A DNA stretch of 64,000 nucleotides from Myxococcus xanthus (GTDB taxonomy: Bacteria > Myxococcota > Myxococcia > Myxococcales > Myxococcaceae). The stretch is taken from contig NZ_FNOH01000017.1 in the NCBI RefSeq assembly GCF_900106535.1, forward strand, positions 1 to 64,000, read 5' to 3'. Under the pieces are notes generated by a model. The model made no database searches and was not told the origin of the DNA. It saw nothing but the letters and a program-made list of their open reading frames with translations. Of the stretch, positions 6,099-13,936 are shown piece by piece. The position numbers were made by a program, and so were the translations under genes. Positions within the stretch are counted from its first letter, which is position 1. The number at the start of each line of letters is the position of its first letter.

Positions 6099-7889
6099 TC
6101 AGATCGACTGACGATACCCGAAGAACTCGTGATCTTCATCGTAGCCGCCGTAGCCGCCTCCCACTTCGAAGAAGTCAGCGACGAACTCGATGCCGGCAAT
6201 CCACTTCACTTGCTTGAAGCCGAGCTGGACCTCGTTGCGCAGGCGAAGCGGCGCCCCGTGGCCGTAAGAAAGCGGCTCGCCGTTCATGTCATAGGCGAGC
6301 ATCGTGAGCTGATAGTGCATCTGCGCGATGGGATGCGCGTCGTAGTAGCGGCCGCCGTCGGAACCGTCGCCGAGCGAGTAGAACACGACCCATTTCGCGT
6401 CGGGCTTCGGCCTGACCAGCTCGAGGAGGGTCTGCATCGAGACGCCGCCCCACTTGGCGACACCGGACCAGCCCTGGATGCAGAAGTGCTGCGTGATCTG
6501 CTCGTGGCGCGGCATGGCGCGCAGCTCGTCGAGGCTCAGCTCGACCGGATTCTCGACGAGCCCGTGAATTCGTAGCCGGTAATCGGCGAAGTGGTTGTCG
6601 AAGAGCGCGCGGTACTCCGGCGTCTCGGGGTACTTGCCGTTGTGCCAGAAGTACGGCGAGATGTCCTTGTCCGTGTAGGTCCCTGGCTTGGCGTCGAGGT
6701 GCTCGAAGAGCCGCTGGGCCGGGCCGATCAGCGAATACCCGACGCGTTGCACGACCCGCGGATGTCGCAGCGTGAACGGCGTGGCCGCCACCCACGCGAT
6801 CACGACGACCGCCATGGAGACAGCGAAGATGCCAAACCCGACCCAATCGTTGGCGTCGGTCCCCGCGTACACGTGGTTCAAGTTTCGCAGCAGGCCGGTC
6901 GCGAAGACCATGGTGACATGGATGAAGGTGAAGAGGATGAACCAGCACAGGACGAGAAAGTGCAGGGAGCGCGCGGTCTGGATGCTGAGCCGCTTGCTGA
7001 TGCCGTGGAACCGGGTCGAAAGCGCTGGCGACATGCCGAGCCCGGTCATGAGCGCGAGCGGCGCCGCGATGAAGACCGTGATGAAGTAGGCGATGATCTG
7101 GAGGCCGTTGTACGCGACCCAGCCATCGTTCTGAGGCCAGCGCAGGGAGAGGTACTGGAGCAGAGCAGACGCGGCGTCGGGGAACACCTGCCAGTTCGTC
7201 GGGACGATGCGGCGCCACTCTCCGGTCGCGAAGAGCAGCACGTAGAAGACGAGTCCGTTCGCCAGCCACAACATATCGATCCCGAGGTGCCACCAGCGGG
7301 CCAGCCCGATTGAGTGGCGGATGCCCGGAAGCCCAAGATGTTTGGGCAGCGTGAGGGAGTCCTGCTTGGCGGTCCAGAGCGGCAGGTCCGGCACCTGCTT
7401 CTGCATCCGGAGCCACTCTTTTCCCGGCGTCGAGTGCCGGGTCCAGTACAGCCGGGGATGGTCGGCGAGGATCTGGAGGCCCGCGCGAATGATGAAGATG
7501 AGGAAGAACAAGTTCAGAAAATGCTGGGCGCGCAACCAGACCGGCATCGGCGTGGCAAACGCGGTTGCGAACCCGGTCCCGGGATGCCGGTGGATGAACC
7601 CTTCGACCGCGGGGAGCCCGCGCAGATACTGCGCTACGGCGACCCCGAACAGGAGAAGCCCCCAACCGATCGGGAGCAGCCAGACCAGGTTGAACCAACG
7701 GTTCGCGCCGATTCGCAGGCGAGGGGCGATACCGAAGGCGGCCGGAATGGAGCCGGCCCAGGTCTTCGGATCGACGACGTCCTCGCCCTTGGTGAGGCGC
7801 TCTCGCAGCTCCTTCACCAGCTCCGGTGAGACGCGGTCGGCTCCAGAGGGCGGCGGTGGCGTGGCGGTCGGTTTCGGTGGGTCTGCCAT
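6099..7889 (-). CDS. fusion of cytochrome b561-like membrane domain and sulfite-oxidase-type molybdopterin oxidoreductase
   Basis: A 596-residue protein with two parts. Residues about 60-390 contain several membrane helices with histidines (for example RHSIGLARWWHLGIDMLW and SLHFLVLCWFILFTFIH) typical of cytochrome b561/YedZ-like heme domains. Residues about 410-596 are an oxidoreductase molybdopterin-binding domain (YedY/sulfite oxidase fold): HFCIQGWSG carries the conserved cysteine that would bind molybdenum, followed by WGG, YYDAHPI and GAPLRLR. In E. coli the equivalent MsrP and MsrQ functions are separate polypeptides, and here both lie in one chain with the heme part first. No Tat signal is visible, so how the catalytic domain reaches its compartment is unclear. 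Start ATG has CAGGAG upstream. It lies 107 bases downstream of the sdh operon on the same strand. Confidence 0.85.
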   Translation of the reverse strand: MADPPKPTATPPPPSGADRVSPELVKELRERLTKGEDVVDPKTWAGSIPAAFGIAPRLRIGANRWFNLVWLLPIGWGLLLFGVAVAQYLRGLPAVEGFIHRHPGTGFATAFATPMPVWLRAQHFLNLFFLIFIIRAGLQILADHPRLYWTRHSTPGKEWLRMQKQVPDLPLWTAKQDSLTLPKHLGLPGIRHSIGLARWWHLGIDMLWLANGLVFYVLLFATGEWRRIVPTNWQVFPDAASALLQYLSLRWPQNDGWVAYNGLQIIAYFITVFIAAPLALMTGLGMSPALSTRFHGISKRLSIQTARSLHFLVLCWFILFTFIHVTMVFATGLLRNLNHVYAGTDANDWVGFGIFAVSMAVVVIAWVAATPFTLRHPRVVQRVGYSLIGPAQRLFEHLDAKPGTYTDKDISPYFWHNGKYPETPEYRALFDNHFADYRLRIHGLVENPVELSLDELRAMPRHEQITQHFCIQGWSGVAKWGGVSMQTLLELVRPKPDAKWVVFYSLGDGSDGGRYYDAHPIAQMHYQLTMLAYDMNGEPLSYGHGAPLRLRNEVQLGFKQVKWIAGIEFVADFFEVGGGYGGYDEDHEFFGYRQSI

Positions 7890-7996: not shown

Positions 7997-9496
7997 TCAA
8001 TGGTGCGACTCCGGCGCGATTAGAAGGCTTCGCCGTGGCCCAGCGTCGGCGGCATGAATGAGGCCTCGGGCCAAGAGCGCGCTACCGAGCGAGCAGAAAT
8101 ACAAATACCCACGCTGCTCGCCGAAGCGGCGGATCAGGCGCTCGAGAGCAGGTCCCGGCTCGACATGCATCAATCCCGAGAGCCCGCGAATGACCCCGAC
8201 ATCGCCCTCCGGGAACACGTCCAGCCGGCCCAAGCCGCGCAGGAGAACCAAGGCCGCGCTCCAGGGGCCAATACCGTGAAGCCCAGTGAGCATCCGCATC
8301 GCCTCGGCGCTGCTCATTTGCGAGAGCATGGCCTCTGTCACATCGCCCGCTTGGATGGCGGCGGCGGCCGCGCGGAGCGCCTCGGCCTTCCTCGCGCTCA
8401 AGCCACAGGAGCGAATCGCGTCGAGCCGCGCCTCGGCGAGCGCAGCAGCAGTAGGAAAGGCGTACCGTACTTGCCCCTCGTGCGGCAAGAACCGGCCGAA
8501 GCGCGCTACCAAACGGCGAACGACTGCGACCCCGGCGTCCAGGCTGACCTGCTGGAACGGGATGACGTTCGCGAACGTCTCGAAGAGGCTGGGGAACCGT
8601 GGCGGCCGCATACCGCGCAGCGCCCGCACAATGGGGCCGAGCTTGCGCTCGGATTGGAGCAGCCGATCGAGCGGCTCCGGGTCCACATCGAGTCCGAGCC
8701 CCCGCCGCAACACCCGAGAGATCTCGGCATGCGCGCCGCGCGAGTCATCCCCATCGAGCACGCGGAACCGGACCTGCGGCTCGTCCACCGTCCCCTGATT
8801 CGAGACCTCGACCAGCACGAAGCCATCGGAGACCGTGAGCGCTCGCAGGTACCGTCCGCCCTCCCAGACGTCGACGAGGTTCGTCGGCCGCCGCTGCAGT
8901 ACGCGCACGGTCGCCTCGAGGTGAAACGGCGCGCGCGTATCGAGGGATGAGCCGAGGCCCGCCGGATACGTGAGCCGCGTGCCATCGACATGAGCGAAGT
9001 CGGTCATCCGGTGCGGCGTCGACCGGGTTCGGCTGGTGATGTGCTCGACCTGCGCGCCGCGAACTGTCAGGGCGTCTGCGACCAGGGAGCGATGGCAACG
9101 CCAGGGCACGGCTTCGGCGCACATCAACGCTACCGTGCCTTCCGCGACCAGCTCACGCAGCTCGGCCAGCCCAGACTCGAACGCGTCCGTCAGCATGTAG
9201 TCCGCGTACCCGCGGAAGCTCGCATTGCGCCACCCCGTGTTCGGTGAGTCACCCCGCGCGTGCCGCAGCCCTCCGAGCGCGGGGAGATGGACGTAACGGA
9301 GGTGATGCCGGCGAAGCGCGGAGCGAAGCGCCTCGCTTTCGAATTGCGGATTGTGGCGCGAGCGCGGGATCGTCCTGATATCAACCACCGTGGAGACGCC
9401 GAACGGTCGAAGGAGCGCGATGAGCTCGTCGAGCGTTCGCGTCGAGTGGCCAACGGTATAGAGTTGGAGGCCTTGCCAGCTCTTTGCCCCGCGCAT
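7997..9496 (-). CDS. DUF488 domain fused to AlkA-type DNA-3-methyladenine glycosylase
   Basis: A 499-residue two-domain protein. Residues about 10-165 are a DUF488 domain: YTVGHSTRTLDELIALL, the VVDIRTIPRSRHNPQF block, and later ALMCAEAVPWRCHRSLVAD, with the conserved Cys/Arg residues of that family. Residues about 190-480 are a DNA-3-methyladenine glycosylase II (AlkA) fold. The helix-hairpin-helix is LHGIGPWSAALVLLRGLG, followed by FPEGDVGV, whose Asp is at the position of the AlkA catalytic Asp. It should excise alkylated purines; the role of DUF488 is unknown. The start is the ATG before MRGAKSW, 18 bases after the cupin stop, so it is the last gene of the sdh operon. Its reading frame is continuous with no frameshift at the junction. 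Confidence 0.9.
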   Translation of the reverse strand: MRGAKSWQGLQLYTVGHSTRTLDELIALLRPFGVSTVVDIRTIPRSRHNPQFESEALRSALRRHHLRYVHLPALGGLRHARGDSPNTGWRNASFRGYADYMLTDAFESGLAELRELVAEGTVALMCAEAVPWRCHRSLVADALTVRGAQVEHITSRTRSTPHRMTDFAHVDGTRLTYPAGLGSSLDTRAPFHLEATVRVLQRRPTNLVDVWEGGRYLRALTVSDGFVLVEVSNQGTVDEPQVRFRVLDGDDSRGAHAEISRVLRRGLGLDVDPEPLDRLLQSERKLGPIVRALRGMRPPRFPSLFETFANVIPFQQVSLDAGVAVVRRLVARFGRFLPHEGQVRYAFPTAAALAEARLDAIRSCGLSARKAEALRAAAAAIQAGDVTEAMLSQMSSAEAMRMLTGLHGIGPWSAALVLLRGLGRLDVFPEGDVGVIRGLSGLMHVEPGPALERLIRRFGEQRGYLYFCSLGSALLARGLIHAADAGPRRSLLIAPESHH

Positions 9497-9514: not shown

Positions 9515-9874
9515 TCATGGGCTCTTCCATCCGAGCGTGAGCAGGAACGCGCTCTCCTCGATCGCCTCCACGTCATGGCGCAGGCCTTTCTCGAGGACGA
9601 GCAAACGCCCGAACGGCAGCTCCACAGTCTTGTCGGGCAGGCGAAGTCGCACGTGCCCGGAGAGCGCGTGGACCGACACGGTTTCGCTGGCGCGATGCTC
9701 CGCCATCCGTGCGCCGGCCTTCATCACGATGAGGACGATGCGCAGGTCGGGCTCGCGCACCAGAGTCCGCGCCGTGTGTCCCTCCCGCTGGTAGGCGTCT
9801 TCTCGCCGCATTTCACGCTCGACTGCCGCCAGGTCGAACGTTGCTCCGCCTACGGGATGTATCGGTTGGGTCAT
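9515..9874 (-). CDS. small cupin-domain protein
   Basis: A 119-residue protein with a single cupin barrel: LVREPDLRIVLIVMKAGARMAEHRA, then SVHALSGHVRLRL and LVLEKGLRHDVEAIEES. Metal-ligand histidines of motif 1 are partly replaced (only AEH is present), while RHDV could supply the motif 2 histidine, so metal binding is uncertain. Its ATG overlaps the sdhB stop codon (ATGA), indicating translational coupling, and the DUF488-AlkA gene follows. Similar proteins are annotated only as cupins of unknown function. A ligand or redox-sensing role within the operon is inference. Confidence 0.8.
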   Translation of the reverse strand: MTQPIHPVGGATFDLAAVEREMRREDAYQREGHTARTLVREPDLRIVLIVMKAGARMAEHRASETVSVHALSGHVRLRLPDKTVELPFGRLLVLEKGLRHDVEAIEESAFLLTLGWKSP

Positions 9875-10683
9875 GCCGTTCCTCCTCTTTCCGGGTCTTG
9901 GCTCTGGGCGTCCGCCTCAGGCTCGCGCCACACTTCGCGTTGGGATGCGATCGATGCCCGGAGCCATTCATGGTTCATGAGCGCGATGGCATCGATGCTG
10001 ATCGACTTCGGGCACGCCGCCTGGCACTCGCCGTGCCAGGTGCAGTTGCCAAAGCCCTCCTCATCCATGCGCGCGACCATGGAGAGCACCCGCCGCTCCC
10101 GCTCCGGCCGCCCCTGAGGCAGGAGCGCCAGGTGAGAGACCTTCGCGCCGGTGAAGAGCGCGGCCGAGGCGTTCGGGCAGGCGGCGACGCAGGCCCCACA
10201 GCCGATGCAAGCCGCGGCGTCCATCGCCCCGTCGGCGTTCTGTTTCGAGACGGCCCGCGTGCTCGCCTCGGGCGCGGCCCCCGTTGGCACCGAGATGAAC
10301 CCGCCAGCGCCGATGATTCGGTCGAGCGCGCTGCGATCGACGATGAGATCCTTGAGCACAGGAAACGCCCGCGCGCGCCAGGGCTCGATCACCAGCAGCG
10401 CGCCGTCCGGAAAGCGGCGCATGTGGAGCTGACACACCGCCGCGCCGCCGAGGGGACCATGCGCCGCGCCATTGATCATCACGCCGCACGTCCCGCAGAT
10501 GCCCTCGCGACAGTCGCTCTCGAACGCGACCGGGGCCTCGCCTTTGGCGGCGAGTTGCTCGTTCAGGACATCGAGCATCTCGAGAAAGGACATGTCGGCG
10601 GTGATGTCAGACACCTCGTAACGGCGGAAGGCGCCCAGGGACCGCGGCCTCTCCTGTCTCCAGATCTGCAGAACGAAGCGCAC
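9871..10683 (-). CDS. sdhB: succinate dehydrogenase/fumarate reductase iron-sulfur subunit
   Basis: A 270-residue protein carrying all three iron-sulfur cluster motifs. The N-terminal [2Fe-2S] ligands are in SDCREGICGTCGVMING plus a later AVCQLH. The [4Fe-4S]/[3Fe-4S] ligands are in CIGCGACVAACP and CTWHGECQAACP. It relays electrons from the flavoprotein to the membrane cytochrome b. It starts with GTG after AAGGAG. It is unusual in being separated from sdhA by an AhpD-like gene, and it overlaps the following cupin gene by 4 bases. The set resembles the menaquinone-linked type with a single cytochrome b subunit. Confidence 0.92.
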   Translation of the reverse strand: MRFVLQIWRQERPRSLGAFRRYEVSDITADMSFLEMLDVLNEQLAAKGEAPVAFESDCREGICGTCGVMINGAAHGPLGGAAVCQLHMRRFPDGALLVIEPWRARAFPVLKDLIVDRSALDRIIGAGGFISVPTGAAPEASTRAVSKQNADGAMDAAACIGCGACVAACPNASAALFTGAKVSHLALLPQGRPERERRVLSMVARMDEEGFGNCTWHGECQAACPKSISIDAIALMNHEWLRASIASQREVWREPEADAQSQDPERGGTA

Positions 10684-10761: not shown

Positions 10762-11235
10762 TCACGGATGCGCCGCCGCGCGGGCCGGCGGTTGGTAGCT
10801 GCCGGGCACGGAGCGGAACGGGATGGCGATCCGGTTCCAGCCGTTGATGGTGATGACCGCCATCGTGAGGCTGACGAGCTCTTCTTCGCTGAAGTGTTGG
10901 CGCACGCGGTCGTACAGCTCATCCGTGACATCGTTCTGCGAGATGAGCGTCAGCGCTTCCGTCCATTCGAGCGCGGCGCGCTCGCGTTCAGTGTAGAACG
11001 GCGTCTCGCGCCAGGCCGACAGCCCGTAGAGCCGCTGCTCGGTTTCCCCGGCGACGCGAGCGTCCTTCGTGTGCATGTCGATGCAGTAGGCGCAGCCGTT
11101 GAGCTGCGACGCGCGAGTCTTGACCAGATCGAGCAGGGGGTGCTCGAGCCCACAGTTGCGGACGAAGCGTTCCAATCCGAGCATCGCCTGGTAGGCGCTG
11201 GATGATTTCTGGGGGAAATCGAGTCGCTGTTCCAT
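10762..11235 (-). CDS. AhpD-like / carboxymuconolactone decarboxylase-family protein
   Basis: A 157-residue protein with the AhpD-family redox motif LNGCAYCIDMHTKDA, containing the CxxC pair and the downstream His that act in peroxidase-type chemistry. The following helix-rich segment, ERERAALEWTEALTLIS, is also typical of the family. A good ribosome site (AGGAG) precedes the ATG. It sits between sdhA (83 bases upstream) and sdhB (78 bases downstream) on the same strand. Such an insertion in an sdh operon is atypical and suggests a peroxide or organic-hydroperoxide role linked to the enzyme's electron leakage (inference). Confidence 0.88.
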   Translation of the reverse strand: MEQRLDFPQKSSSAYQAMLGLERFVRNCGLEHPLLDLVKTRASQLNGCAYCIDMHTKDARVAGETEQRLYGLSAWRETPFYTERERAALEWTEALTLISQNDVTDELYDRVRQHFSEEELVSLTMAVITINGWNRIAIPFRSVPGSYQPPARAAAHP

Positions 11236-11318: not shown

Positions 11319-13232
11319 TCATTTGTAGCTCCTGGTCTCCGCCGCGACCGACTCGAAGGAGAGTGGCTCCTTGTGGAGCGCGGGAGGTCGATCCTGGCCG
11401 CGGTATTCCCATACCGACACATGGCAGAAGTGCTCGTCATCTCGGCGCGCCTCACCTTCCGCCGTTTGAAACTCCTCGCGGAAGTGCGCTCCGCACGATT
11501 CGCGCCGCTCGAGCGCGTCGCGGCACATCAGCTCCGCGAGCTCGTAGTAATCGGCGAGCCGCCCTGCTCGCTCGAGCGAGTCGTTCAGCTCGATGCCGGT
11601 GTCCGGCAGCCGGAGATCTCGCTCGAAGTCGCCCTGAAGCGCCTGGATGCTCTCGAGCGCGGAGGACAGCCCGCGCTCGCTGCGCGCCATGCCGCATTGT
11701 TCCCAGAGGAGGCTACCCAGCGCGCGGAAGTGGTCCTCGACGGTTCGCGTGCCTCGCGAGGCGAGCAGGCGCTCGAGCTTTGCCTGCACGATGCGCTCGG
11801 CGTCTCGAAACGCGGGATGGTCAAGGTCGACCGACCCTGGCCCGAAACGCGCCAGCTCGGCCGCGATGGTGTTCGGGACGATGAAGTAGCCATCGGCGAG
11901 CCCCTGCATGAGGGCGCTCGCGCCGAGGCGGTTCGCGCCGTGGTCGGAGAAGTTCGCCTCGCCGAGCACGTAGAGGCCCGGCAGGGTGCTGCGCAGGTCG
12001 TAGTCCACCCAGAGCCCGCCCATGGTGTAGTGGACGGCGGGGTAGATCCGCATCGGCGCCCGGTACGGGTGCTCGCCCGTGATGCGCTCGTACATCTCGA
12101 GGACGTTCCCGTAACGTTCGCGAATGGTACCGGCCCCGAGACGCTCAATGGCATCACCGAGGTCCAGATACACGCCGCGCCCGCCGGGGCCAACGCCCCT
12201 GCCCTGGTCACAGATTTCCTTGGCCGAGCGCGAGGCGATGTCACGCGGCGCGAGGTTGCCGTAGGTTGGGTACCGCCGCTCGAGGAAGTAGTCCCGTTCG
12301 CTCTCCGGGATATCGCGCGGTGTCCGCTGGTCCCCCTTGAGCTTCGGCACCCAGACACGCCCGTCATTGCGCAAGGACTCGCTCATCAGGGTGAGCTTCG
12401 ACTGATGAGGCCCGCTGACGGGGATGCAGGTCGGATGGATCTGCGTGAAGCAAGGGTTGGCGAAGCCGGCGCCCCTTCGGTACGCGCGCCAGATCGCGGT
12501 CGCGTTCGAGCCTCGCGCGTTGGTCGAGAGATGGTAGATGTTGCCGTAGCCTCCTGTCGCGAGGATCACAGCATCGCCGGCGAACGCCCTCAGCTCGCCC
12601 GTCCGGAGGTCGCGCGCGATGATTCCCCGCGCCCGTCCGTCGACCATGACGAGATCGAGCATTTCGGTCCTCGGATGCATGCGAACCTGGCCCGCGCTGA
12701 TTTGCCGCTCGAGCGCCTGGTAGGCGCCGAGGAGAAGTTGCTGCCCAGTCTGTCCACGCGCATAGAAGGTGCGCGAGACGAGCGCGCCCCCGAAAGAGCG
12801 TGTGGCGAGGAGCCCTCCATATTCGCGGGCGAAAGGGACTCCCTGGGCCACGCATTGGTCGATGATGCGGTTGCTCACCTGGGCAAGCCTGTAGACATTC
12901 GCCTCGCGGGAGCGGAAGTCGCCGCCTTTCAGCGTGTCGTAGAACAGCCTCCACACGCTGTCGCCGTCGTTGCGGTAGTTCTTCGCGGCATTGATGCCGC
13001 CCTGCGCGGCGATGCTGTGCGCGCGCCTCGGCGAGTCGTGAAAGGAGAAGCAGTGCACACGGTAGCCAAGCTCGGCGAGCGTCGCCGCGGCCGAAGCCCC
13101 CGCCAGCCCGGAGCCAACCACGAGCAGTGTGTACTTGCGCCGGTTGCTCGGACCAACCAGGCGTCCTTCGCGCAGTCGGCGCTCCCACTTTTGCTCGAGC
13201 GGCCCGCTCGGAATCCTCGCGCCGAGATCCAT
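11319..13232 (-). CDS. sdhA: succinate dehydrogenase/fumarate reductase flavoprotein subunit
   Basis: A 637-residue flavoprotein. The dinucleotide-binding motif is [29 protein letters not shown] includes the His that covalently binds FAD. Substrate-site and family blocks include [26 protein letters not shown] and [14 protein letters not shown]. It oxidises succinate or reduces fumarate at the cytoplasmic face. The start at 13232 ([10 protein letters not shown]) fits the family and directly follows sdhC, whose stop begins at 13235; an open frame continues upstream but only as antisense-type sequence. The C-terminal region resembles long type-B enzymes. The sdhC-sdhA-sdhB order is interrupted by the AhpD-like gene. 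Confidence 0.93.
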
Positions 13233-13234
13233 GG

Positions 13235-13936
13235 CTAGCGCACACCTCCGAGCCAGATCGTGAGCGGAATGCTGCTGAAGCCGCCCCAGAGCACCAGGGC
13301 GAGGATCCACGCAACCGGTCGCCGTTTCGGCCGAGGCGAGGGGCGCGACCTCCCGAGGCTCCGCAGCGAGGCCCATGCACCGTGCCAGACATGCATCCCG
13401 ACGAAGGCCAGCGCGCCGAGATAGATGGCCACCACCCAGGGGACGCGGAAGCCCTCCACGACGTTGTGGTAGACGTCATGCTTCTCGAACGGCACCGGCG
13501 CGATGGTCCCAGTGGTCAGATGGAGAATGTGGAAGACGATGAACCCCGCGAGCACGACGCCCGTGAGGCGCATCGTCCGAGCGGGCACGGTCGTGGATCG
13601 TGGCCTGAGTCGGCGGTAAGCCACCGGGCGCGCGAAGCGGTCACGATTCCAGAGCAGCGCCGCCGCGCCGATGTGGATGACGGCGGAGGCAAGGAGCACC
13701 GCGCGAGCGGCCCACAGGAGCGGGGGCTCCCGAACGAGAAACGCGGAGTACTCGTTGAGGGCATCCCGCCCTCGGTAAACGAGGAGATTGCCGAGCAGGT
13801 GGAAGACGAGGAACACGACCAGCACGATGCCAGTCGCTGCCATCAGCACCTTCAGCCCGACCGTGGACCGCCACGGATGCCGGCGTCGCGAGGCGTCCTG
13901 CGGGCGGTCTTCATTGAACTCACCGATGGACTGCAT
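13235..13936 (-). CDS. sdhC: succinate dehydrogenase/fumarate reductase cytochrome b subunit
   Basis: A 233-residue membrane protein with five hydrophobic segments, matching the cytochrome b558 subunit of type-B enzymes. Histidines suited to two hemes occur in [37 protein letters not shown] and MHVWHGAW. It anchors SdhAB and transfers electrons to or from menaquinone. An upstream AGGGGAG precedes the ATG. It is the first gene of the operon, and its promoter should lie in 13937-14030. Confidence 0.88.

What the first reader, a model, noticed from the sequence alone, without database searches (positions are those of the whole stretch)
7997..9496. DUF488 domain fused to an AlkA-type glycosylase inside an sdh operon
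The open frame joins a full DUF488 domain to a complete DNA-3-methyladenine glycosylase with its HhH and catalytic Asp. DUF488 has no assigned activity; a physical fusion to base-excision repair gives a concrete hint that it handles nucleic acid or alkylation/nitrosative damage. Placement as last gene of a succinate dehydrogenase operon adds a link to respiration.
Basis: partly seen in the sequence, partly recalled or inferred. Interest (0 to 1): 0.78.

Follow-up and report, generated by a model that had tools for sequence, protein, structure and literature searches.

The report
DUF488 fused to AlkA-type DNA glycosylase
In a myxobacterium and a scattered set of other bacteria, a DNA-repair enzyme that cuts out damaged bases is joined in one protein to DUF488, a phosphatase-like domain with no demonstrated function, which suggests that DUF488 helps to finish the same repair.

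Summary
Window 7997-9496 (-) is one 499-aa frame: DUF488, a short linker, then AlkA_N plus HhH-GPD with the catalytic Asp (D432). It is no assembly error: I found the same fusion in 16 distinct genomes (Myxococcus, Nannocystis and MAGs labelled Myxococcales, Deltaproteobacteria, Proteobacteria and Planctomycetaceae); candidate active-site residues of both halves are intact in 15 of 15 aligned. One relative carries the halves as two genes overlapping by GTGA; an Acidithiobacillus ferrooxidans plasmid carries DUF488-CMD-AlkA as consecutive genes. The fused DUF488s form one group (support 92), so one fusion event is likely.

The sdh link is weak: another gene (molybdopterin/cytochrome b561 oxidoreductase) follows 107 nt downstream, and outside Myxococcus the only sdh match beside a fusion is a relic (L069). 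More recurrent DUF488 partners are base-repair genes (UDG, MGMT-like, AlkA) within two genes in 8 of 23 annotated plasmid loci, DUF2945, and that oxidoreductase.

The predicted DUF488 structure resembles Cys-phosphatases and diphthine-synthase-like methylases (Z 7-8, middling). Best reading: a two-step base-excision factor in which AlkA removes the base and DUF488 processes the resulting sugar-phosphate end. The chemistry is inferred, not shown. Known families, new combination.

The parts
7997..9496 (-). DUF488-AlkA fusion gene, 499 aa
9068..9433 (-). DUF488 domain (residues 22-143)
   Evidence: Pfam PF04343, 118.6 bits
9119..9121 (-). codon of C126, invariant Cys at the end of predicted strand 122-126, in the motif CAEAVPWRCHR
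   Evidence: invariant in A2, A3 and A5; model DSSP
8933..8962 (-). linker (residues 179-188), 7-12 residues in 14 of 15 fusions, 76 in L072
8597..8947 (-). AlkA_N domain (residues 184-300)
   Evidence: Pfam PF06029
8156..8557 (-). HhH-GPD glycosylase domain (residues 314-447)
   Evidence: Pfam PF00730; whole AlkA half Z 31.3 to 2jhj_B
8201..8203 (-). codon of D432, the residue aligned with the second Asp of the FPADD segment of A. fulgidus AlkA (2jhj); its catalytic role in AlkA is recalled
6099..7889 (-). cytochrome b561-molybdopterin oxidoreductase, next gene, 107 nt downstream; 54% identical to the one beside DUF488 on a Bradyrhizobium plasmid
9515..9874 (-). cupin-like protein, 18 nt upstream; also near the fusions in L069 (72%) and L070 (41%)
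   Evidence: (below Pfam cut-off)
10762..11235 (-). CMD/AhpD-like protein, 55% identical to the gene between DUF488 and AlkA on A. ferrooxidans pACF1
9871..10683 (-). sdhB, iron-sulphur subunit (context)
11319..13376 (-). sdhA flavoprotein (context); a 39% identical second copy lies elsewhere in the genome
13235..13936 (-). sdhC, b558-type cytochrome b subunit (context)

Best explanation
The protein is a two-step base-excision-repair factor. The C-terminal AlkA half finds and excises alkylated or deaminated bases (D432), leaving an abasic site, as AlkA does. The N-terminal DUF488 half has a cysteine-phosphatase-like (rhodanese-phosphatase) fold with a nucleophile-like C126 and arginines (R136, perhaps R133) near the place of the phosphate-binding loop; it acts on the next intermediate of the same lesion, a phosphate or deoxyribose-phosphate at the abasic site or at the incised strand end, so that the blocked end is made ready for polymerase and ligase. 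Shown here: the fusion, its conservation, one probable origin, intact family residues in both halves, and neighbourhood of unfused relatives with base-repair genes. Predicted: the AlkA fold (strong match) and a phosphatase-like fold of DUF488 (middling match). Inferred: that DUF488 is an enzyme here, and that its substrate is the product of the glycosylase step.
For: Both domains over Pfam cut-offs in one frame. The same order in 16 distinct genomes; linker 7-12 aa in 14 of 15 aligned, no stops. In 15 fused and unfused DUF488s 35 residues do not vary; 34 of these are also invariant in the 15 aligned fusions (W89 is F in L072), including G16, H17, D39, R41, C126, E128 and W132-R136. D432 invariant in 15 of 15 fusions and aligned with an Asp of A. 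fulgidus AlkA. AlkA half Z 31.3, 282 residues, rmsd 2.4 to 2jhj_B; 29.6 to E. coli AlkA 1mpg. DUF488 model pLDDT 90.7; the 50 structural rows listed are, by title, Cys-phosphatases (KAP Z 8.0, PRL-3 7.9, SsoPTP 7.7, baculovirus RNA 5'-phosphatase 7.5) or methylases of the diphthine-synthase/tetrapyrrole kind (6.7-8.1; borosin enzymes put there from memory); C126 closes strand 122-126 before helix 136-145. Fused DUF488s form one group, SH-aLRT 92. Halves as adjacent genes: G143 (GTGA overlap) and A. ferrooxidans. Base-repair genes within two genes of DUF488 in 8 of 23 annotated plasmid regions; 8 of the 10 such genes among 406 listed neighbours lie in those 92 nearest slots (hypergeometric 1.6e-4; 5.9e-4 without the one region chosen for its AlkA; 2.4e-3 with one of three related Rhodococcus kept). 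In print: a DUF488 protein near RadC-like and UvrD genes on Methanoperedens plasmids (PMC9674854, passages).
Against: No tested activity of this DUF488 group came up in any call. The structural matches to phosphatases are middling (Z 7-8), which the tool warns may mean only a common arrangement; plain Foldseek has no match under E 0.001 and its list mixes phosphatases with PGAM5, KaiC, ATPases and others. R133, which would give a C-x6-R loop (PTPs have C-x5-R, recalled), is K or S in 3 of 27 rows of A5, all viral-contig sequences. Unfused myxobacterial DUF488s (54-65% identical) show a base-repair neighbour, by my queries, in 0 of 14 regions, so DUF488 does not need AlkA. The AlkA clade also lives without DUF488 (13 of 27 loci, three of them only partial matches; L066, sister of the window's AlkA, has probably lost it). 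The arrangement of the two domains is not known (pTM 0.69). The neighbour category was chosen after the fusion was known, and UDG and MGMT were added after I had seen some tables.
Confidence: 0.4

Rival explanations
1. DUF488 acts on a small molecule or nucleotide (for example a released damaged base, a nucleotide, an NAD/ADP-ribose derivative or another sugar phosphate), and is fused to AlkA because both belong to one alkylation/nitrosative stress response, not because they act on the same DNA molecule.
For: CMD, carbonic anhydrase, cupin and molybdopterin oxidoreductase genes recur near DUF488 and are metabolic or detoxifying. NO- or nitrate-related genes lie in 6 of 23 plasmid regions (hcp, hemerythrins, DUF2249; NarK; NnrS; globin; trHb; nirK), 7 if a nitrite/sulfite reductase is counted. 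The related DUF4326 clade is predicted to process phosphates on ribose of ADP-ribose (PMC9503650, passages). AlkA removes nitrosation products xanthine and oxanine (PMC3788762, passage).
Against: A physical fusion with a short linker, held in genomes whose other neighbours differ, argues for action in one place; UDG and MGMT-like neighbours are DNA enzymes. No control was run for the NO category.
Confidence: 0.28
2. DUF488 is a non-catalytic DNA- or partner-binding module that positions AlkA (lesion search, dimerisation, handing over to AP endonuclease).
For: Pfam names an 'inactive' DUF488 subclade, so non-catalytic use may exist in the family (a second DUF488 of this genome, L106, matches it with 147.7 bits).
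Against: The fusion DUF488s keep the candidate active-site residues in 15 of 15, and show a lower dN/dS than the AlkA half between congeners (few changes).
Confidence: 0.17
3. The fusion is an accidental join of neighbouring genes with no functional meaning, kept by drift or as part of the sdh transcription unit.
For: Few genomes carry it (5 of 195 held phylum genomes); the AlkA clade also occurs alone.
Against: Kept at 63-69% identity between lineages with family residues intact and in varying contexts; adjacent-gene versions in two other lineages.
Confidence: 0.08
4. A biological-conflict role: the DUF488 half belongs to candidate anti-phage systems and the glycosylase attacks modified phage DNA.
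For: The DUF488 half matches PADLOC candidate models PDC-M45B (E 1e-32) and PDC-M19A (E 1e-18); a scan of viral contigs gave 12 with DUF488. I recall a 2023 paper predicting conflict roles for this clade.
Against: The neighbouring genes of the run that were scanned are metabolic, and three of them had no PADLOC match. A pattern scan of viral contigs found none with this AlkA clade.
Confidence: 0.07

Closest known systems
AlkA, DNA-3-methyladenine glycosylase II (A. fulgidus AlkA 2jhj, E. coli AlkA 1mpg)
   Same: AlkA_N plus HhH-GPD, catalytic Asp aligned, Z 29.6-31.3 over 276-282 residues
   Different: 23-29% identical; scores 61.7 against the NCBIfam AlkA equivalog cut-off of 229; carries an N-terminal DUF488 domain
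DUF488 (PF04343), subclades N3a/N3i (PF22751/PF22752)
   Same: 118.6 bits over the whole profile; C and CHR motif intact
   Different: below the N3a cut-off (22.5 versus 27 bits), so not placed in that subclade; fused to a glycosylase
A. ferrooxidans pACF1 DUF488-CMD-AlkA gene set
   Same: the same three families side by side (the window has CMD in the same run, with sdhB and the cupin between it and the fusion)
   Different: separate genes; DUF488 49%, CMD 55% and AlkA 34% identical; lies among hcp, hemerythrin and Crp/Fnr genes
Cysteine phosphatases, some acting on RNA ends (baculovirus RNA 5'-phosphatase, mRNA capping enzyme), and tetrapyrrole/diphthine methylases
   Same: overall fold of the DUF488 model, Z 6.7-8.1
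   Different: 7-15% identical in most rows; loop spacing C-x6-R if R133 is the loop Arg; no activity tested
Bifunctional glycosylases such as OGG1
   Same: HhH-GPD fold, Z about 25-26.5; idea of two repair steps in one protein
   Different: there the second step uses the same domain (recalled); here a second, unrelated domain is joined
Other DUF488 fusions: ParB-CTPase fold with DUF488-HTH in archaea (PMC12704722, passage)
   Same: DUF488 joined to a nucleic-acid-related protein
   Different: CTP-binding partner, not a glycosylase

Membership tests
DUF488 (PF04343) | profile match over Pfam's gathering score | tested here: met
   118.6 bits versus 22.2
DUF488 (PF04343) | conserved Cys and CHR motif | tested here: met
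   C126, E128, W132, C134-R136 invariant in A2, A3 and A5
DUF488-N3a 'active' subclade (PF22751) | profile match over cut-off | tested here: not met
   22.5 bits versus 27 for the fusion, 24.7 for the half
AlkA-type DNA glycosylase | AlkA_N and HhH-GPD over cut-off | tested here: met
   43.5 versus 26 and 45.6 versus 26.2 bits
AlkA-type DNA glycosylase | catalytic Asp after the hairpin | tested here: met
   D432 aligned with the Asp of 2jhj, invariant in 15 of 15 fusions; its role is recalled
AlkA-type DNA glycosylase | AlkA fold | tested here: met
   predicted model, Z 31.3 and 29.6
E. coli AlkA equivalog (NF007641) | equivalog cut-off of 229 bits | tested here: not met
   61.7 bits
AlkA-type DNA glycosylase | base excision activity | not testable with these tools
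   needs assay
Rhodanese-phosphatase superfamily | fold | tested here: inconclusive
   Cys-phosphatases and diphthine-synthase-like methylases fill the re-aligned list at Z 6.7-8.1, a middling range; plain Foldseek has nothing under E 0.001
Rhodanese-phosphatase superfamily | catalytic Cys at the end of the central strand, followed by a loop with Arg and a helix | tested here: inconclusive
   C126 ends strand 122-126, helix 136-145, but no residue-by-residue superposition was available and R133 is not invariant
succinate dehydrogenase operon member | conserved linkage to sdh genes | tested here: not met
   of 14 fused loci, sdh matches only in L065 (near-copy of the window) and a 33-aa sdhB relic in L069; also present in G076

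The most novel reading that the evidence does not exclude
DUF488 is a cysteine-dependent DNA-end-processing enzyme of base excision repair, and this fusion is a self-contained glycosylase plus end-cleaning enzyme; the unfused DUF488s beside UDG, MGMT-like and AlkA genes in alphaproteobacteria, actinobacteria and Acidithiobacillus do the same job in trans.
Probability: 0.25. Interest if true: 0.8.

Novelty: new variant of a known kind. Interest (0 to 1): 0.52.

Why it matters
DUF488 occurs in bacteria, archaea and some phages, and no tested activity came up in any call here. A natural fusion to a glycosylase with well-known chemistry gives one purifiable protein, a small list of substrates (AlkA products and their incised ends) and two point mutants (C126, D432) that separate the steps. 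If the reading holds, it adds end-processing by a cysteine enzyme to bacterial base excision repair and gives a function to DUF488 genes that lie beside UDG and MGMT-like genes.

Tried and rejected
Assembly error or frameshift at the junction: rejected (16 genomes, continuous coding signal). Halves separate in all close relatives: rejected for two congeners (G076, G078), G047 and G138, but true of most relatives: of 96 family genomes searched 4, the window's included, have the full fusion, and 43 genomes have a 54-65% identical DUF488 without it; 38 of these were fetched and none has an AlkA match in the stretch held (1.5 kb each side as a rule, about 7 kb for most of 14 of them). The sdh link as a functional clue: rejected as main context. 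Viral origin: a scan gave 12 viral contigs with DUF488 and none with this AlkA clade; 8 phage records match the DUF488 half at about 35%. Solved relatives of the DUF488 half by sequence: only two chance-level matches, E 0.6-0.8. Standalone myxobacterial DUF488 neighbours: little shared context; among 10 sampled neighbours a SAM hydroxide adenosyltransferase, a histone-deacetylase-like protein, DUF1801, MFS, a methyltransferase and a signal peptidase, four without a Pfam match. Ten sampled neighbours of other fusions are mixed too: LPG synthase, NAD-binding, carbonic anhydrase, Glu dehydrogenase, desaturase, old-yellow-enzyme type, methyltransferase, molybdopterin oxidoreductase, histidine kinase, one without match. 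Literature: DUF488 with glycosylase, 0 papers; DUF488 with nitric oxide, 1 paper, seen in the listing only; DUF488 alone, 25 papers, listing, of which passages of two were read; DUF2945, 1 paper, listing. The library holds open-licence papers only. The Burroughs and Aravind 2023 paper was not held, so what I say of it is recalled.

The neighbour counts for the hypergeometric figures were counted by hand from the tables (23 regions with annotation); one search had no annotation and one search was an AlkA hit without annotation, both left out. The L097 resistance prediction was not counted as a gene. In the trees I dropped duplicate loci of the same genomes, two distant DUF488 loci (L049, L050) and matches under about 130 (DUF488) or 200 (AlkA) residues. 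The DUF488 tree is a quick one with many open forks; L077's AlkA lies in an unresolved fork.

Full report
What is there. The window lies in a 9.26-Mb genome whose nearest named relative at this locus is Myxococcus xanthus AM003. On the minus strand the genes run sdhC, sdhA, a CMD/AhpD-like gene, sdhB, a cupin-like gene, the fusion (7997-9496) and a cytochrome b561-molybdopterin oxidoreductase, with gaps of 83, 78, -4, 18 and 107 nt after sdhA; sdhC and the longest sdhA frame overlap by 142 nt, so the true sdhA start is probably inside. The fusion is one frame of 499 codons: DUF488 22-143, AlkA_N 184-300, HhH-GPD 314-447.

Is it real. The same protein is 95% identical in two congeners. A pattern scan of one genome for each of 84,980 species with the AlkA half gave 27 loci, of which 14 are fused to DUF488 in one frame (L065, L067-L077, L079, L085) and 13 are not, L089-L091 of these being partial matches (context). 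In 14 of 15 aligned fusions 7-12 residues separate the conserved TYP end of DUF488 from the APFHLEATVR start of AlkA; one (L072) has 76; none has a stop. In the held genomes of the phylum this AlkA clade is in 8 of 195 at E 1e-50: five fused, one split, two without DUF488 beside it (G139 within the stretch held; G110, where DUF488 lies about a million bases away). The phylum labels of the MAG loci are those of the records and may reflect binning.

How it arose. The 16 fused DUF488s form one group with SH-aLRT 92, beside a group of 38 unfused myxobacterial DUF488s (quick tree, many weak branches). In the AlkA tree the fused halves need two changes: L066, an AlkA without DUF488, sits firmly with the window's AlkA (100/99), and a search for DUF488 in its 8.2 kb found only chance-level matches, so DUF488 was probably lost there. 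In G143 the halves are two genes: DUF488 ends in GTGTGA and the AlkA frame can start at the GTG that shares GTGA with that stop. On A. ferrooxidans pACF1 DUF488 and CMD overlap by 1 nt and AlkA abuts CMD. An operon pair turned into a fusion is the simplest account; this is inference.

Function of the AlkA half. Closest solved relative by sequence is A. fulgidus AlkA (E 8e-23), and the predicted model matches it with Z 31.3. D432 aligns with the second Asp of the FPADD segment. It is not an E. coli AlkA equivalog (61.7 bits versus 229). AlkA is described as removing 3-methyladenine and other alkylated bases, and nitrosation products such as xanthine and oxanine, leaving abasic sites (PMC3788762, passages seen; the source paper was seen only in reference lists). 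The genome has another AlkA-like gene (30%, L002) and a further HhH match (L003), so the fusion is an extra.

Function of the DUF488 half. Among 15 fused and unfused DUF488s, from bacteria of several phyla and one archaeal plasmid, 35 residues do not vary; 34 of them are also invariant in the 15 fusions, W89 being F in L072. In a wider set of 27 that includes viral-contig sequences G16, H17, D39, R41, C126, E128, W132 and C134-R136 stay invariant, while R133 is K or S in three viral rows. The model (pLDDT 90.7) has C126 at the end of a strand, a loop, then a helix. Re-alignment of Foldseek's list puts Cys-phosphatases and diphthine-synthase or tetrapyrrole methylases on top at Z 6.7-8.1; plain Foldseek has nothing under E 0.001, and its list also holds PGAM5, KaiC and ATPases. 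This agrees with the rhodanese-phosphatase placement that I recall from Burroughs and Aravind 2023, which could not be read; it is not proof. A related clade, DUF4326, is predicted to work on ribose phosphates (PMC9503650, passages). Printed nucleic-acid contexts of DUF488 that I saw: near RadC-like and UvrD genes on Methanoperedens plasmids (PMC9674854, passages) and in a CTP-binding ParB-fold protein with HTH (PMC12704722, passage).

Neighbourhoods. Twenty-three annotated plasmid regions around DUF488 genes (about 41-62% identical to this one) were read. Base-repair genes within two genes: AlkA in Acidithiobacillus; UDG family in two Rhodococcus plasmids, Sphingobium and Agrobacterium; MGMT-like in Rhodococcus qingshengii, Arthrobacter and Rhodococcus opacus: 8 of 23. 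Of the 10 such genes among 406 listed neighbours, 8 lie in the 92 nearest slots (P 1.6e-4; 5.9e-4 without Acidithiobacillus, which was opened because of its AlkA; 2.4e-3 keeping one of three related Rhodococcus). Pfam confirms UDG or the MGMT DNA-binding domain for the three that I scanned. The Arthrobacter plasmid also has Ku and an ATP-dependent ligase within 8 kb. DUF2945, a 70-aa Tudor-like protein by Pfam, is the immediate neighbour in 7 of 23 and on two viral contigs. NO- or nitrate-related genes are in 6 of 23 regions, 7 with a nitrite/sulfite reductase; no control was run. Some regions, for example Haladaptatus, Natrinema, Roseomonas, Legionella and Streptomyces, show none of these.

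The window's own neighbours fit that pattern better than sdh does. Its oxidoreductase is 54% identical along its length to the one beside DUF488 and DUF2945 in Bradyrhizobium; on plasmids this oxidoreductase lies about 0.5, 0.1 and 0.5 kb from DUF488 in Bradyrhizobium, Variovorax and Mesorhizobium loti, and at least 8 of its 25 records also carry DUF488, the other five 8-22 kb away (only 60 of 91 DUF488 records were listed, so this is a lower bound). Near other fusions it recurs in L068 (40%) and L069 (80%), the cupin in L069 and L070, CMD in L085 (1.4 kb off), and carbonic anhydrase, a Rhodococcus DUF488 neighbour, in three Nannocystis. CMD is common on plasmids in general (486 records), so its link is weaker. 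Of the fused loci read, sdh genes accompany the fusion in the window, G076 and G078/L065; L069 keeps a 33-residue sdhB relic before the oxidoreductase.

Against the reading: 0 of 14 regions around unfused myxobacterial DUF488s show a base-repair neighbour recognised by my queries, and those regions share little context. The DUF488 half also matches PADLOC candidate phage-defence models, so the family may have other uses.

Verdict. The fusion is real, sparse, conserved and probably of one origin. It makes DUF488's link to base repair concrete and testable; the sdh link should not be leaned on. Each part belongs to a known family and the general idea of a nucleic-acid role for DUF488 seems to be in print already (recalled), so this is a new variant of a known kind, of moderate interest.

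Noticed in passing
L069:3094-3192: A 33-residue relic of an sdhB C-terminus (67% identical) just before the oxidoreductase-cupin-fusion block in another Myxococcales genome.
   Followed up: partly
L106 (G000 contig C5), L107 (G000 contig C30): Two further DUF488 genes in the same genome; L106 matches Pfam's 'inactive' DUF488-N3i subclade.
   Followed up: partly
L092 (A. ferrooxidans pACF1): DUF488-CMD-AlkA sits between hemerythrin/DUF2249 genes and a Crp/Fnr regulator with hcp: looks like a plasmid-borne NO-stress set with DNA repair.
   Followed up: partly
window:7997-9496 DUF488 half: Matches PADLOC candidate phage-defence models PDC-M45B and PDC-M19A.
   Followed up: no
L101, L102 (Rhodococcus plasmids): Fic-family protein with VbhA-type antitoxin within a few kb of DUF488, in two differently arranged plasmids.
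   Followed up: no
L116, L117 (viral contigs): DUF2945-DUF488 pairs on contigs classed as viral.
   Followed up: no
L104 (Gemmatirosa plasmid): An AlkA of a related clade beside a DUF2945 gene; no DUF488 match was seen there.
   Followed up: no
window:11319-13376: sdhA here and a 39% identical second copy elsewhere in the genome (contig C10): two Sdh/Frd-type flavoproteins.
   Followed up: no
window:6099-7889: A cytochrome b561-molybdopterin (sulphite-oxidase type) single-chain oxidoreductase, up to 71% identical on Rhodococcus plasmids, that keeps company with DUF488; function unknown.
   Followed up: partly
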